Shown piece after piece: positions 15,398 through 20,271 of a stretch of DNA of 39,404 nt. The notes beneath the pieces were generated by a model. It saw only the letters and a list, made by a program, of their open reading frames with translations, searched no databases and was not told the origin of the DNA. How positions within the stretch are numbered: the first letter of the stretch is position 1; the number at the start of each line of letters is the position of its first letter. The DNA is from Chitinophagaceae bacterium (GTDB lineage: Bacteria > Bacteroidota > Bacteroidia > Chitinophagales > Chitinophagaceae): assembly GCA_003167015.1 (NCBI GenBank), contig PMUF01000380.1:2177-41580 (forward strand), read 5' to 3'. The translations under genes and the position numbers were made by a program.

Positions 15398-15421
15398 AAA
15401 GGCTATACACAGCCTTTTTTT
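15398..15421 (+). terminator. terminator-like hairpin inside the IS end, plus-strand direction
   Basis: AAAGGCT pairs with AGCCTTT around ATACAC and is followed by a T run (15415-15421). It overlaps the orfB stop. Its orientation would stop transcription entering the element from the left flank, a known way for IS elements to limit transposase expression from outside promoters. Confidence 0.5.
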
Positions 15422-16407
15422 AAAGATAGTTCTTTGTTTTGTCGACCAGAAAGAAGAGGCGGGGGGTTGCTCTGTGGGGGGAGTTGTCCCGCCTCTTCAA
15501 TACCAGTTGTCGGTTGTTTATTTATTCTTTTTTTTGGGTACTTTTTCCACCTTTTTTTTAATTCTCCCTCTTTTTGGTGAGCCTGGGAAGGGGTTAGATA
15601 ATCACAACTGCCATGAGGTCTGATATCATTGTAAGCCGTTATACTCCTGACAATGCGATCATAAGTATCCTCAAAGCTTTCCTGGCTGCTGTAGAGGTTA
15701 AATTCCCCTTTGATAATTCCATTCATTCGCTCGGCCAGGGCATTTTCATAAGGATCGCCACGTTCTGTCATGCTGATCGCTATGTTTTGAGATCCCAGTA
15801 AGTCAACATACTCTTTACAGCAATACTGGCATCCCCGATCCGAATGATGAATCAATGCATGTCGTCCATAGCTGCGGTTAGCATAGGCCATTTGCAAAGC
15901 CTCCAAACAGCCCAGGGCAGACAAATCGCTGCGGAAGCCAAAGCCCACGATCTTGCGCGAATAAGCATCTGTAATCAAGCTTAGATAGCCCCATTGATTT
16001 ATCATTCTGATATAGGTGATATCACTCACCCAAAGTTGTTCGGGACGCGTAATGACCAGCTCTCGGGTTAGGTTGGCATACTTACGCATCCAGTGTCGGG
16101 AATCGGTCGTAAAGACCTTTCTCTTGCGCTGCCTGATCAATAGTTTATGCTCCTGCAGCAAATCAAATAAATAATCCCGCCCTACCTCAATTTGATGGGA
16201 GAGGAGATCAGGCCTCAGCAGGGGCAACAGTTTACGCGTCCCTAACTTGGGTAAGGGTATTCTTATTTGGCGCACCAACTGTAAAATAATCTCATCTCTT
16301 ACGCTATGATCCTGCTGACGCCACCCGTGATCATAGTATGCGTGGCGAGTCTTGCCAAACAGTCTGCACAGGACCTCCTTGCTGATATGAGGATAGTCCT
16401 GCTTCAT
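15403..16407 (-). CDS. IS3-family transposase OrfB (DDE integrase catalytic part)
   Basis: The 334-residue frame has the rve-type catalytic core with the DDE triad in WVSDITYIR, HHSDRGCQYC and ERMNGIIKGEF, and the HTH_21-like N-terminal part (FGKTRHAYYDHGW). After the core comes a Lys/Pro-rich tail (GELKKRWKKYPKKR), seen in several Bacteroidota copies. It catalyses strand cleavage and joining in transposition. The frame continues upstream of its ATG through the orfA end without a stop, so the functional protein is most likely the OrfAB fusion produced by -1 frameshifting, as known for the IS3 family. All motifs are intact, so the copy may be active. Confidence 0.93.
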   Translation of the reverse strand: MKQDYPHISKEVLCRLFGKTRHAYYDHGWRQQDHSVRDEIILQLVRQIRIPLPKLGTRKLLPLLRPDLLSHQIEVGRDYLFDLLQEHKLLIRQRKRKVFTTDSRHWMRKYANLTRELVITRPEQLWVSDITYIRMINQWGYLSLITDAYSRKIVGFGFRSDLSALGCLEALQMAYANRSYGRHALIHHSDRGCQYCCKEYVDLLGSQNIAISMTERGDPYENALAERMNGIIKGEFNLYSSQESFEDTYDRIVRSITAYNDIRPHGSCDYLTPSQAHQKEGELKKRWKKYPKKRINKQPTTGIEEAGQLPPQSNPPPLLSGRQNKELSLKKGCV

Positions 16408-16409
16408 TC

Positions 16410-16973
16410 TTATGACTGCCTGGCACCAGGTTTTTTTCGGATAGAAATTTTAAACTGTTCTTCGGCCACGTCAATCATGGTATTTAAAGCCTTTATTTTA
16501 AGTTCGGCTTCCTGTAGTTTTTTCAGCGCCTCCTCGAGTGCCTCTTTGCTCGGATCAGGATCGGGTTGCCGGTTTGACTCTTCTTTTGCCATAAGGGTCT
16601 TGTTGGATGCCTCAAGTTCCTCATTTTCCCGCTGAAAATCACGTAACCACTTCTTGATCGTAGGGGTCCAGGAGAGGTTATGGGCCAATTTGGCCTCGGC
16701 TACCGTCATCCGGCCCTCTTCCAGCGCCCGGACAATCGATCTGCGCTGCTGCAAACTCAGATGCCCTTGCTTCCTGGCATGATAGGCCTGGGAACCATAT
16801 TCCCGCATCCAATCACATAAGGCACTTCGAGACATCCCATGTGCTTTTACCGCCTCACTTCGAGGCATGCCATTTTCAATCGCCAACACGATCTCCTTGA
16901 TAAAACGTTTGTCATACCCGGCACCGCGTTTCCTGCGCCCCGGATCTTCATTTTTGTCGTAATTTGCTGACAT
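16410..16973 (-). CDS. IS3-family transposase OrfA (DNA-binding part)
   Basis: The 187-residue protein carries two helix-turn-helix regions: one in IVLAIENGMPRSEAVKAHG ... SALCDWM (about residues 28-57) and one in IVRALEEGRMTVAEAKLAHN ... TIKKWLRDF (about 78-115). A leucine-zipper-like coiled coil follows (LEEALKKLQEAELKIKALN). The length matches the IS150 subgroup rather than the short OrfA of IS3 itself. It should bind the terminal repeats. A run of seven A (minus strand, 16431-16437) near its end is the likely frameshift site joining it to OrfB. Confidence 0.9.
   Translation of the reverse strand: MSANYDKNEDPGRRKRGAGYDKRFIKEIVLAIENGMPRSEAVKAHGMSRSALCDWMREYGSQAYHARKQGHLSLQQRRSIVRALEEGRMTVAEAKLAHNLSWTPTIKKWLRDFQRENEELEASNKTLMAKEESNRQPDPDPSKEALEEALKKLQEAELKIKALNTMIDVAEEQFKISIRKKPGARQS
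16431..16437 (-). promoter_or_regulatory. programmed -1 frameshift signal (A7) between orfA and orfB
   Basis: On the minus strand the orfA codons CGA AAA AAA CCT include A7. Slipping back one base yields AAA AAA ACC, which enters the orfB frame; orfB is open there and runs into its own ATG. A short palindrome, CCTGGTGCCAGG, follows immediately and could form a small stimulatory stem. Confidence 0.75.
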
Positions 16974-17036: not shown

Positions 17037-19229
17037 ATGAGAAAGATTTTATTTCTTTTACTGTTGCCGCTGCAAGGTCTTGCGCAGCGGAGCGCATTCC
17101 TTCCTTTTAAGAAATATCCGTTCCCGACCGAACTCGCCGCGGCTCCGGCGGGAGCGCGAATAGCCTGGGCGATGGATGAAGAGGGGCGGCGCAATGTATA
17201 TGTTGCGGAAGGGCCTGCCTTTACGCCTCGCAAGCTGACCGATTTTTCGGAAGATGACGGGCAGGAGATCACCAGCCTTTCCATCTCTGCTGACGGGCGG
17301 TGGGTGGTGTTTGTGCGGGGCGGCGATCATGGCGCCAACTGGGAAAGCGGGTTGCCGGTCAATCCTGCGGCTGACACTCAACCTTTCAAAGTGCAGGTTG
17401 CGTGTATTCCTTTTGCGGGAGGGGCGGTGAAGTATTTGTCCGCAGGGGACCATCCGGTTATATCGCCCGACAGTAAGACTGTGGCGTTCATCAAGGCCGA
17501 CCAGGTATGGGGAACGGCGCTGGATAGCGCGGCCGCAACGAATCTCTTTACGACCCGGGGCAGTGTCAGTTCGCTGCAATGGTCACCCGACGGCAAGCGG
17601 TTGTTGTTTGTGGCCAACCGGACGGATCATGCCATCATTGGGATCTATACTCCGGGCTCTTCCCCGATCAAATGGATAGCGCCCTCCTTTTACCGGGATG
17701 AAGTACCGCAGTGGAGTGGTGATGGGAGCAGGATTGTCTTCGTCCGGCGGCCGGGAGAGGGCGGGGCGCCCGATTCGATGCTGGTACGTCAGCCCGAGCC
17801 CTGGAGCATCTATATCGCGGATACGGCCGGCGGCAGGCCTGTGCTGCTGTGGAAGTCGTCGCTGACCTTACGCGGGTCTTTTCCGCCGACGGATGGCGGG
17901 GCGAATCTGCATTGGGCGGTGGGCAACAGGATCGTCTTCCTGACTTACGTGGATGGGTGGCCGCATTTGTATTCGCTGGATGCGGGAGTGGAAGCGGCTT
18001 CGGCGGCTCGTGGGACCGCGGCGGGCGCGGCTTCGGGCGGCGCGAAACCCTTGTTGCTGACGCCGGGGAATTTTATGTGCGAGCATATCAGGCTCAGCGC
18101 CGACAGGCGCTACCTTATCTTCAGTGCGAATGCGGGGGATGACCCTGGCGACATCGAGCGGCGGCATGTGGGGATGGTCAGTGTAGACAAGCCGGACATG
18201 GAGGTGATGACGCCGGGTAAAGGACTGGAATGGACGCCTGTGCTGACGGGGGACAGCAGGACGCTGGCCTTTATCAGCGCTACGCCGCAGCGGCCGCCTC
18301 TTCCTGCGGTGATGGGGCTGGCGGATAACCCCCGGAAGAACTTTACGGTGTTATGTGCCGACAGGATACCGGCGGATTTTCCCCAGGGGACATTGGTGAC
18401 GCCCAGGGCGGTGACTTTCCGGGCGTCGGACGGGGTGATCGTGCATGCGGATTTGTTCGAGGCAGGGGTTGCGGGGGCTCCACCGGGCCCGGCCGCGAAA
18501 GGCGCGCGGAGACCGGCGATCGTGTATGTACATGGCGGGCCGCCGAGGCAGATGCTGTTGGGCTGGCATTATTCGGATTATTATTCCAATGCGTATGCAA
18601 GTAATCAATATTTGGCAAGCTTAGGCTTTGTGGTACTGGCAGTGAATTATCGGCTGGGCATCGGTTATGGATATGACTTTCATCAACCTGCCCATGCGGG
18701 ACCGGCGGGGGCAGCAGAGTATAAAGATATCAAGGCGGCGGGGGAATGGCTTCGCCGGCAAAGTGATGTCGATACAGCCAGGATCGGTATCTATGGCGGT
18801 TCCTATGGCGGTTTCCTGACGGCGCTGGCGCTGGCCCGAGACTCCAAACTATTTGCCGCGGGCGTGGATTTTCACGGGGTTCATGACTGGCTCGCTCAAT
18901 CTTCGCTGATGACTGCCTTCAAAGATAAATATGAAAAGGCCCCGGATTATGACAAGGCGCTGAAGACGGCGTGGCTTTCTTCACCGGTCTCCGCGATTGA
19001 TACGTGGAAATCGCCGGTGCTGATCATCCAGGGAGATGACGACAGGAATGTGCGTTTCAACCAGAGCGTCGACCTGGTGAACCGGCTGGAGAAGAAAGGG
19101 GTGCCGATCGAAACGATGGTGATAGTGGATGATACGCATCACTGGATGAACTTTGCCAATTCGGTGACGGTGTATGCTGCGGCAGCGGATTTTTTTACGC
19201 GGCAGTTTATGAAGGGAGGTGGGAAATGA
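17037..19229 (+). CDS. S9-family serine peptidase (prolyl oligopeptidase / dipeptidyl peptidase-like)
   Basis: The 730-residue protein has a signal peptide (MRKILFLLLLPLQGLAQ), a propeller-type N-terminal part with PD40/WD40-like repeats (SISADGRWVVFVRGG, VISPDSKTVAFI, LQWSPDGKRLLFVA, LSADRRYLIFSANAG) and a C-terminal hydrolase domain from about residue 480. The catalytic triad reads Ser589 in YGGSYGGF, Asp669 in QGDDDRNV and His701 in DDTHHW, in the family order. It should cleave short peptides in the periplasm or at the cell surface. The gene is very GC-rich with Gly/Ala-rich loops (AASAARGTAAGAASGGA). Its last 23 bp overlap the end of the convergent Zeta-like gene, and its ATG is 24 bp from an IS element. 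Confidence 0.93.
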   Translation: MRKILFLLLLPLQGLAQRSAFLPFKKYPFPTELAAAPAGARIAWAMDEEGRRNVYVAEGPAFTPRKLTDFSEDDGQEITSLSISADGRWVVFVRGGDHGANWESGLPVNPAADTQPFKVQVACIPFAGGAVKYLSAGDHPVISPDSKTVAFIKADQVWGTALDSAAATNLFTTRGSVSSLQWSPDGKRLLFVANRTDHAIIGIYTPGSSPIKWIAPSFYRDEVPQWSGDGSRIVFVRRPGEGGAPDSMLVRQPEPWSIYIADTAGGRPVLLWKSSLTLRGSFPPTDGGANLHWAVGNRIVFLTYVDGWPHLYSLDAGVEAASAARGTAAGAASGGAKPLLLTPGNFMCEHIRLSADRRYLIFSANAGDDPGDIERRHVGMVSVDKPDMEVMTPGKGLEWTPVLTGDSRTLAFISATPQRPPLPAVMGLADNPRKNFTVLCADRIPADFPQGTLVTPRAVTFRASDGVIVHADLFEAGVAGAPPGPAAKGARRPAIVYVHGGPPRQMLLGWHYSDYYSNAYASNQYLASLGFVVLAVNYRLGIGYGYDFHQPAHAGPAGAAEYKDIKAAGEWLRRQSDVDTARIGIYGGSYGGFLTALALARDSKLFAAGVDFHGVHDWLAQSSLMTAFKDKYEKAPDYDKALKTAWLSSPVSAIDTWKSPVLIIQGDDDRNVRFNQSVDLVNRLEKKGVPIETMVIVDDTHHWMNFANSVTVYAAAADFFTRQFMKGGGK

Positions 19230-19848
19230 GTGCGGTCAGGTTCTTAAGATTTTTGGTGAACCACATGGGTAGTCTTTCCACAGCTAAGCTGTATGACAGC
19301 GTATTGTTTTTAATTTGTAACAGTAATAAATGTTCCGTTTGCGAAGAATCAATAATGGTAAGGTTATCAATTACTGGATAGTGGATGTCCAGCTTTTCGA
19401 GGTTACCATAAAAGTTGTCTTCTACCGTAAGCCGGGGAACAAAATGTCCCCCTTCTTTTACCCTGTTAATGACCCGTAGTTCGGAGGTGTCGGGATCAGT
19501 CAGGCCTAAGAAAATCATGCTGATGACATAACCCCTGGATTTAAACATTTCCGGAATATCCCAGGTAGAATCATTCGTAAAATGACCTTCGTAGACGAAG
19601 GTATCGTTTGCTTCCAGGGCTCGTTCTACAAGTTGGTCAAAGGTATCGCTGACATACTGGTAGGCTAGTTTTCTTGCTTCTTTATGGGCTTTTATTCCGG
19701 TATTCCACAACTCTTTCTGCTTTTGCATAAAAAGCTTATCTCCATCGAATATGGAATATTTGTTTTGAATATGTTCAGGGAGATAATTGAAGCCTAATGA
19801 AGATTTGCCCGCACCGTTTGCCCCGGTTATTATATATAATTCAGGCAT
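19207..19848 (-). CDS. Zeta-toxin-like P-loop kinase/ATPase (COG4185 type), candidate toxin
   Basis: The 213-residue protein opens with a Walker A motif in LYIITGANGAGKSSL, followed by an acidic residue in IFDGDKLF. It also has VYEGHF and MIFLGLTDP strands and the signature NRVKEGGHFVPRLTVEDNFYG ... NL, which I associate with the Zeta-like 'predicted ABC-type ATPase' group. Classical Zeta toxins phosphorylate UDP-N-acetylglucosamine and block wall synthesis; whether this branch does so is not known from the sequence. It lies 9 bp after a small gene on the same strand, the usual antitoxin-first order. It is AT-richer than the flanking peptidase, and its 3' end overlaps that gene by 23 bp, which suggests insertion of a transferred module. 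Confidence 0.85.
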   Translation of the reverse strand: MPELYIITGANGAGKSSLGFNYLPEHIQNKYSIFDGDKLFMQKQKELWNTGIKAHKEARKLAYQYVSDTFDQLVERALEANDTFVYEGHFTNDSTWDIPEMFKSRGYVISMIFLGLTDPDTSELRVINRVKEGGHFVPRLTVEDNFYGNLEKLDIHYPVIDNLTIIDSSQTEHLLLLQIKNNTLSYSLAVERLPMWFTKNLKNLTALISHLPS

Positions 19849-19857
19849 GCAAAATAA

Positions 19858-20109
19858 TTAGGCAAGATGGTACTTCTTTCTTATGTCAGCATTTTCAATG
19901 CCTGAAAGCTCCCGAAGCACAGTAAAGTCACTACCAGCGGATGAAATGGTGACCAATAATATTTTACCGTCGGGAAATTCCAGGTAACATTGGTTGCCGG
20001 GTAATTCTTTGGCGTTAATCATGAAAGGCATTCCTTTGCGCAGCTTATCAATGCGAAGCGTCTTAACCGCATTACTGCCAGTCTGCTCTAATTTTTGAAC
20101 ATCGGTCAT
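19858..20109 (-). CDS. small protein upstream of the Zeta-like gene, candidate antitoxin of unknown family
   Basis: I do not recognise a named family. The start could be ATG at 20109 (MTDVQKLEQTGSNAVK, 83 residues), 20127 or 20202. I prefer 20109, because the residues before it are rich in Phe/Ile and look untranslated. The protein is soluble, with a basic first third (AVKTLRIDKLRKGMPFMI), a central strand-rich part (QCYLEFPDGKILLVTISS) and an acidic/helical end (LSGIENADIRKKYHLA). The 9-bp spacing to the toxin-like gene, the same strand and the small size suggest an antitoxin or cognate partner. It has no visible helix-turn-helix, so self-regulation by DNA binding is not evident. Confidence 0.6.
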   Translation of the reverse strand: MTDVQKLEQTGSNAVKTLRIDKLRKGMPFMINAKELPGNQCYLEFPDGKILLVTISSAGSDFTVLRELSGIENADIRKKYHLA

Positions 20110-20271
20110 AATAGGGTTATTTTTCATAAAGTTACTGAAAATTGGCTTGAAATTTTTGAAAATAATGCTGCTGGACCTGATAGGAAAAGTGTATAAAAGC
20201 ATCTTGTCACAGAAGCCAAAAGATTAGAAAAGATCTAACGGAATTCTAAGGCGCTTTTAATTCGAAGTGGA

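What the first reader, a model, noticed from the sequence alone, without database searches (positions are those of the whole stretch)
19207..20127. Zeta-like kinase paired with an unrecognised small upstream gene: candidate non-classical toxin-antitoxin module
The Zeta-like protein (Walker A GANGAGKSS and the GGH-VPRL motif) is preceded by 9 bp by a small soluble protein on the same strand. That protein does not look like Epsilon, PezA or another antitoxin I know and has no visible helix-turn-helix. The pair is AT-richer than its surroundings, and the toxin's 3' end overlaps the neighbouring peptidase by 23 bp, as after insertion of a mobile module. If conserved as a pair, the small protein would define a separate antitoxin family or a cognate substrate/adaptor.
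Basis: partly seen in the sequence, partly recalled or inferred. Interest (0 to 1): 0.65.

Follow-up and report, generated by a model that had tools for sequence, protein, structure and literature searches.

The report
Zeta-kinase toxin with a new antitoxin
A two-gene module that spreads between soil and water bacteria of the Bacteroidota pairs a Zeta-type kinase (most likely a toxin) with a small protein that belongs to no described family and is, by all genetic signs, its antidote; distant versions of the same pair sit on plasmids of Proteobacteria.

Summary
A 213-aa Zeta_toxin-family kinase (19207-19848, minus) lies 9 nt downstream of an 83-aa gene (19858-20109, minus). The small protein matches nothing in Pfam, NCBIfam, PADLOC, PDB sequences or PDB folds. 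The pair is conserved: in 74 loci found with the kinase alone, all 51 intact kinases have an intact small gene directly upstream (overlap 17 nt to gap 15 nt). Fifteen further loci keep the small gene although the kinase is broken; none shows the reverse. The two proteins co-diverge (Mantel r 0.81), the pair is scattered across genera, is AT-richer than its flanks and usually has its own promoter box. Both genes are under purifying selection. In a read-through fusion model the small protein becomes confidently ordered against the kinase. Profile comparison ties it to small genes on proteobacterial plasmids, half of the ten examined also next to a zeta kinase. Best reading: an autonomous, horizontally spreading type II-like toxin-antitoxin module with an undescribed antitoxin family (not helix-turn-helix, ribbon-helix-helix or epsilon/PezA). 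The kinase keeps the ATP and catalytic residues but lacks the UDP-GlcNAc-binding GTxR motif (GHF instead), so its substrate probably differs. Toxicity and neutralisation are inferred, not shown.

The parts
19858..20109 (-). Small upstream gene, 83 aa: candidate antitoxin of an undescribed family; predicted helix (res 3-24), four short strands (29-31, 40-44, 50-55, 62-67), helix (70-79); core motif G-x-PFMIN...YLEYPDG
   Evidence: ORF; conserved family of 61 aligned members with R19, G26, F29, E44 invariant; no Pfam/NCBIfam/PADLOC/PDB match; AlphaFold model pLDDT 82
19207..19848 (-). Zeta_toxin-family P-loop kinase, 213 aa: candidate toxin
   Evidence: PF06414 E 2.8e-9, above cut-off; top 12 fold matches are AvrRxo1-ORF1, zeta (1gvn, 3q8x) and PezT (2p5t); 48-row alignment with invariant catalytic columns
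19801..19824 (-). Walker A motif GANGAGKS, kinase residues 9-16
   Evidence: G9, N11, G12, K15, S16 invariant in 48 homologues
19738..19740 (-). Asp37, equivalent of catalytic base Asp66 of PezT / Asp67 of zeta
   Evidence: aligned by hmmsearch to the DGD of PezT; invariant; role from PMC3062530
19576..19593 (-). YEGHFT, residues 86-91, where zeta/PezT carry EGTxR; the UNAG-binding Thr and Arg are replaced by His and Thr
   Evidence: alignment to PezT; Y86, E87, G88, H89 invariant in 48 homologues; role of GTXR from PMC6362051
19438..19476 (-). R125...R129...GGHxV, residues 125-137: phosphate-binding/catalytic arginines, with His135 in the place that Rv0366c also fills with His
   Evidence: R125, R129, G133, G134, V137 invariant; same R-to-H spacing as Rv0366c R116/H122
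20127..20134 (-). Promoter-like box TAACTTTA just upstream of the small gene (variant of the Bacteroidota TAnnTTTG box)
   Evidence: TAnnTTTG lies within 150 nt upstream of the small gene in 43 of 65 homologous loci, 6.6 expected after shuffling; the window copy differs by one base
19207..19229 (.). 23-bp convergent overlap of the kinase 3' end with the S9 peptidase gene 17037-19229 (+)
   Evidence: ORF coordinates; peptidase orthologues end at the same place

Best explanation
An autonomous, horizontally spreading toxin-antitoxin operon. The downstream gene makes a short Zeta-type P-loop kinase that, when free, phosphorylates an essential small metabolite and stops growth. The upstream gene makes an 83-aa alpha-beta protein of an undescribed family that binds the kinase directly and keeps it off (type II mode). 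It is made first because its gene is first and is coupled to the toxin gene by 9 nt or, in relatives, by overlap. Shown here: kinase family and fold, obligate pairing, co-divergence, toxin-first decay, purifying selection, patchy spread. Inferred: toxicity, direct neutralisation, that binding blocks the nucleotide or substrate site, and a substrate other than UDP-GlcNAc.
For: Kinase above the Pfam Zeta_toxin cut-off, fold of zeta/PezT/AvrRxo1, Walker A, Asp37, Glu87, Arg125/129 invariant. 51/51 intact kinases have an intact small gene immediately upstream; 15 broken kinases keep an intact small gene; 0 intact kinases lack one; spacing -17 to +15 nt in 68 loci. Independent scan from the small gene: 14 of 17 genuine hits in 399 genomes of the order have a zeta homologue downstream, one more keeps 15 residues of it. 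More distant zeta kinases of the phylum lack it, so it tracks one subfamily. Mantel r 0.81, no permutation of 2000 above 0.23. Genera scattered on the tree. Own promoter box. Small protein alone pLDDT 82, pTM 0.66; in the read-through fusion with the kinase its blocks rise to 91-97 and the whole has pLDDT 95, pTM 0.82. Homologous small genes on proteobacterial plasmids: hhalign 91-92.5% against a maximum of 7.6% in 100 column shuffles.
Against: No toxicity or binding experiment. The fusion model had a 4-residue linker and mostly unpaired alignment rows, coordinates could not be inspected, and pLDDT gain is indirect evidence of contact. No DNA-binding fold, so no classical autorepression. Half of the ten plasmid relatives of the small gene examined have no zeta neighbour, so that branch may have other roles.
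Confidence: 0.83

Rival explanations
1. The kinase is a non-toxic metabolic or repair kinase and the small protein is its obligate subunit or allosteric regulator; the pair is an accessory enzyme, not a TA module.
For: Two-gene obligate pair with strong purifying selection would look the same; many P-loop small-molecule kinases share the fold.
Against: A mere subunit should decay with its enzyme, yet the small gene stays intact in 15 loci where the kinase is broken; patchy, scattered distribution; closest folds are zeta, PezT and AvrRxo1.
Confidence: 0.1
2. The small protein is the substrate or targeting adaptor of the kinase, as the first reader offered as an alternative.
For: Constant pairing and co-divergence fit any obligate partner.
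Against: Known zeta-fold toxins phosphorylate small molecules (PMC3062530, PMC5923241, PMC5491322). An adaptor has no reason to persist after loss of the kinase. No invariant Ser/Thr/Tyr in the small family: the invariant residues are R19, G26, F29, E44.
Confidence: 0.04
3. A phage-defence or anti-plasmid module in which the same TA pair acts as an abortive-infection switch.
For: TA modules often serve so; scattered horizontal spread.
Against: No defence-gene neighbours in the window; no specific PADLOC match; not found in viral contigs. Not exclusive of the main explanation.
Confidence: 0.2
4. A chance neighbour or an artefact of ORF calling.
For: One could suspect this from a single locus.
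Against: Adjacency in 51 of 51 intact homologues, dN/dS mostly 0.01-0.11.
Confidence: 0.005

Closest known systems
epsilon/zeta and PezAT (S. pyogenes, S. pneumoniae)
   Same: Zeta_toxin family kinase fold, Walker A, catalytic Asp, antitoxin gene upstream
   Different: Antitoxin there is a three-helix bundle; here a helix-four strands-helix protein without sequence or fold match. UNAG-binding GTxR is replaced by GHFT; the kinase is shorter (213 aa).
Rv0366c-Rv0367c (PezAT-like pair of M. tuberculosis, PMC6362051)
   Same: Short kinase (about 200 aa), same P-loop position, R...H spacing, loss of GTxR
   Different: Its antitoxin is ribbon-helix-helix/ParD-like (Pfam PF11903); the present one matches neither.
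AvrRxo1-Arc1 (PMC4938570; kinase of NAD, PMC5491322)
   Same: Closest fold match of the kinase (4z8t, 4z8q); small partner; lower GC; partner intact when the toxin is a pseudogene
   Different: Gene order reversed there (antitoxin downstream); toxin of about 380-420 aa; Arc1 structures were not among the 50 best fold matches of the small protein.
ng_epsilon1/ng_zeta1 (N. gonorrhoeae, PMC5923241)
   Same: Gram-negative zeta system with a divergent antitoxin
   Different: Antitoxin there is an extended, non-globular chain; toxin has an extra OB domain and rewired topology.
Unnamed zeta pairs on proteobacterial plasmids (e.g. E. coli pMTY18780-4, Zymomonas pZM33, Paraburkholderia pBPHYT01)
   Same: About 80-aa hypothetical gene overlapping or abutting a short zeta kinase; homologous core (hhalign 91-92.5%)
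   Different: Kinase under 32% identical; different N-terminal half of the small protein; several copies without zeta.

Membership tests
Zeta_toxin kinase family (PF06414) | Profile score above the curated cut-off | tested here: met
   37.2 bits against 22.3; 11 of 11 relatives match
Zeta_toxin kinase family (PF06414) | Zeta/PezT P-loop kinase fold | tested here: met
   Best fold matches AvrRxo1-ORF1, 1gvn, 3q8x, 2p5t, E 4e-7 to 1e-6
Zeta_toxin kinase family (PF06414) | Walker A and catalytic Asp | tested here: met
   K15, S16, D37 invariant in 48 sequences; D37 aligned with PezT D66
epsilon/zeta or PezAT system | UNAG-binding GTxR motif | tested here: not met
   GHFT/GHF instead
epsilon/zeta or PezAT system | Antitoxin with three-helix bundle (epsilon) or HTH plus bundle (PezA) | tested here: not met
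   Predicted alpha-beta4-alpha, no PDB fold match at E<0.001
Type II toxin-antitoxin module | Small antitoxin gene co-directional and tightly linked to toxin gene | tested here: met
   -17 to +15 nt in 68 loci
Type II toxin-antitoxin module | Intact toxin never without intact antitoxin; toxin decays first | tested here: met
   51:0 intact, 15 toxin-only losses
Type II toxin-antitoxin module | Protein-protein complex of toxin and antitoxin | tested here: inconclusive
   Fusion model pLDDT 95, pTM 0.82, small part more ordered than alone; coordinates not inspectable
Type II toxin-antitoxin module | Toxin arrests growth and antitoxin rescues | not testable with these tools
   Needs expression assay
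Rv0366c-Rv0367c type | RHH/ParD-like antitoxin (PF11903) | tested here: not met
   No PF11903 match in any of 16 members scanned
AvrRxo1-Arc1 | Antitoxin gene downstream of toxin | tested here: not met
   Small gene upstream in every locus

The most novel reading that the evidence does not exclude
The small protein founds a cross-phylum antitoxin superfamily (a G-x-P-[FIY] strand and an EYPDG hairpin after an N-terminal helix) that serves short zeta kinases in Bacteroidota, Proteobacteria and perhaps Cyanobacteria, neutralising kinases of a new, non-UNAG substrate; some plasmid members have changed toxin partner or act alone.
Probability: 0.45. Interest if true: 0.68.

Novelty: new variant of a known kind. 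Interest (0 to 1): 0.52.

Why it matters
Zeta kinases are common in Gram-negative genomes, but the antitoxins described for them are few: epsilon/PezA, ParD-like RHH, Arc1 and ng_epsilon1. An antitoxin family found with all 51 intact kinases of one subfamily fills part of that gap, gives annotators a name for a recurring 'hypothetical protein', and makes two questions directly testable: how a non-DNA-binding alpha-beta protein shuts off a zeta kinase, and what a zeta kinase without the UNAG motif phosphorylates.

Tried and rejected
Empty insertion site: peptidase and OmpA neighbours are not adjacent in genus relatives and downstream regions differ, so no clean empty site. Viral contigs: no relatives; phage records only distant kinase hits. 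Plasmid search with the small protein itself: none; only the kinase led to the plasmid family. Other Bacteroidota zeta partners (L026/L028/L030 type) as members of the same family: not supported by hhalign (5% or less, within the range of shuffles). Hit L016 is a chance match inside another gene's frame. Class-wide scan with the small profile found only one further genome. Literature searches returned no description of this antitoxin; only open-licence papers are held, so subscription papers on zeta partners were not seen.

Full report
Observation. The window holds, on the minus strand, an 83-aa gene (19858-20109; the ORF is open to 20202) followed after 9 nt by a 213-aa gene (19207-19848). 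The second gene scores 37.2 bits against Pfam Zeta_toxin (cut-off 22.3). The first has no match in Pfam, NCBIfam or PADLOC, nor do 15 relatives at a meaningful level in Pfam, nor does its profile in PDB sequences. The 23-bp overlap with the S9 peptidase is real, but peptidase orthologues end at the same place.

Conservation of the pair, starting from the small gene. A scan of 399 genomes of the order gave 18 places in 15 genomes. One is a chance hit (L016). Of the other 17, 14 have a zeta homologue directly downstream, sometimes frameshifted or truncated; one keeps only 15 residues of it, and two have none.

Conservation of the pair, starting from the kinase. A scan of the GTDB genome collection with kinase peptides only gave 74 loci, mainly Chitinophagaceae, Sphingobacteriaceae and Flavobacteriales. 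All 51 with an intact kinase carry an intact small gene upstream; 15 loci have an intact small gene and a broken kinase; none has an intact kinase with a broken or missing small gene. The remaining loci are contig ends, loci where both genes are fragmentary, or weak kinase fragments. Spacing in 68 loci runs from a 17-nt overlap to a 15-nt gap. The search demanded part of the kinase and nothing of the small gene, so the asymmetry of decay is conservative. Some frameshifts may be draft-assembly errors, which would strike the longer gene more often; even so, 15 to 0 is unlikely from length alone (about 0.715 to the power 15, or 0.007; my arithmetic). In the phylum, strong kinase hits have the partner and more distant zeta kinases have other neighbours, so the partner tracks a subfamily.

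Evolution. Pairwise distances of the two proteins correlate (52 pairs, Mantel r 0.81, highest of 2000 permutations 0.23). Purifying selection acts on both genes (dN/dS mostly 0.01-0.11; one small-gene pair 0.24). Mucilaginibacter, Chitinophaga, Sediminibacterium, Parapedobacter and Flavobacterium sequences fall in several places on the tree, and the family is sparse (15 of 399 genomes of the order, 2 of 395 drawn from the class; the class scan may be less sensitive). The pair has lower GC than its flanks in 40 of 52 loci (mean -0.032, Wilcoxon p 7e-7). A TAnnTTTG box precedes the small gene in 43 of 65 loci against 6.6 expected, so the pair usually brings its own promoter. No clean empty site was found in relatives.

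The kinase. The best fold matches of the model are AvrRxo1-ORF1, zeta (1gvn, 3q8x) and PezT (2p5t). Walker A, Asp37 (PezT Asp66, whose loss abolishes toxicity: PMC3062530), Glu87, Arg125/Arg129 and GGH are invariant or nearly so. The UNAG-binding GTxR motif (PMC6362051) is replaced by GHFT, with H89 invariant. As argued for Rv0366c in that paper, this suggests another substrate; AvrRxo1, of the same fold, phosphorylates NAD (PMC5491322, title). The substrate here is unknown.

The small protein. Alone it is modelled as helix, four short strands, helix (pLDDT 82, pTM 0.66), with no fold match at E<0.001 in PDB or viral models; neither epsilon, PezA nor Arc1 appears among the 50 best PDB matches. 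Because the intergenic 9 nt keep the frame, the natural read-through (stop read as Gly) could be folded as one chain with 88 relatives: pLDDT 95, pTM 0.82, and the small part rises to 91-97, its first ten residues from 53 to 93.

Wider family. The kinase, not the small protein, led to plasmids. There, zeta genes of E. coli, Paraburkholderia and Piscirickettsia follow an about 80-aa hypothetical gene that abuts or overlaps them, and a search from the E. coli copy added Burkholderia and Zymomonas. The small proteins tested also lack family entries. Profile-profile comparison with the Bacteroidota family gives 92.5% and 90.9% probability over 43-48 columns around GxP and EYPDG, against a maximum of 7.6% in 100 shuffles and 0.8% reversed. 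Of the ten plasmid loci of this family examined, five have a zeta kinase next to them. A third type of zeta partner in Bacteroidota (L026/L028/L030) did not pass this test.

Mechanism. Most likely: antitoxin made first from the same message, binds the kinase and holds it inactive; loss or degradation of the antitoxin frees the kinase, which phosphorylates an essential metabolite and stops growth; the module thereby stabilises itself in the host. Only pairing, decay pattern, co-divergence, selection, fold and spread are shown; toxicity, neutralisation, interface and substrate are inferred.

Comparison. By what it works like, it is a zeta-type toxin-antitoxin system. By membership, the kinase belongs to Zeta_toxin, but the system is not epsilon/zeta, PezAT, the Rv0366c type or AvrRxo1-Arc1, because tested defining features of each are not met. 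I rate it a new variant of a known kind.

Noticed in passing
window 15403-16973 (-): Two adjacent ORFs matching a helix-turn-helix domain (16410-16973) and an rve integrase core (15403-16407): an IS3-like transposase pair just beyond the S9 peptidase, about 2.2 kb from the module.
   Followed up: no
L026, L028, L030 (upstream of the zeta kinase): Other Bacteroidota zeta kinases have a different 79-90-aa upstream partner with an 'EYRDHKELVK'-like C-terminal motif; not significantly related to the present family by hhalign.
   Followed up: partly
L025, L027, L029 (upstream of the zeta kinase): Zeta kinases preceded by a 53-55-aa gene that overlaps the kinase start; a further possible partner type.
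   Followed up: no
L167 908-1563 (Xanthomonas arboricola plasmid): A relative of the plasmid small-gene family overlaps by 4 nt a gene annotated 'antitoxin VbhA family'; L161, L163, L165 and L166 also lack a zeta neighbour, so this branch may have other partners or act alone.
   Followed up: no
L005 570-1500 and L118: Kinase gene broken after residue 46; in L005 a nucleotidyltransferase (MNT-like) and a HEPN-like ORF, typical of another TA type (recognised by eye, not searched), follow at once.
   Followed up: no
L075 (Limnohabitans MAG) and L093 (Beijerinckiaceae assembly): Copies in records named as Proteobacteria, but with Bacteroidota-like sequence (L075 groups with Flavobacterium L081); possibly transfer, more likely mis-binned contigs.
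   Followed up: no
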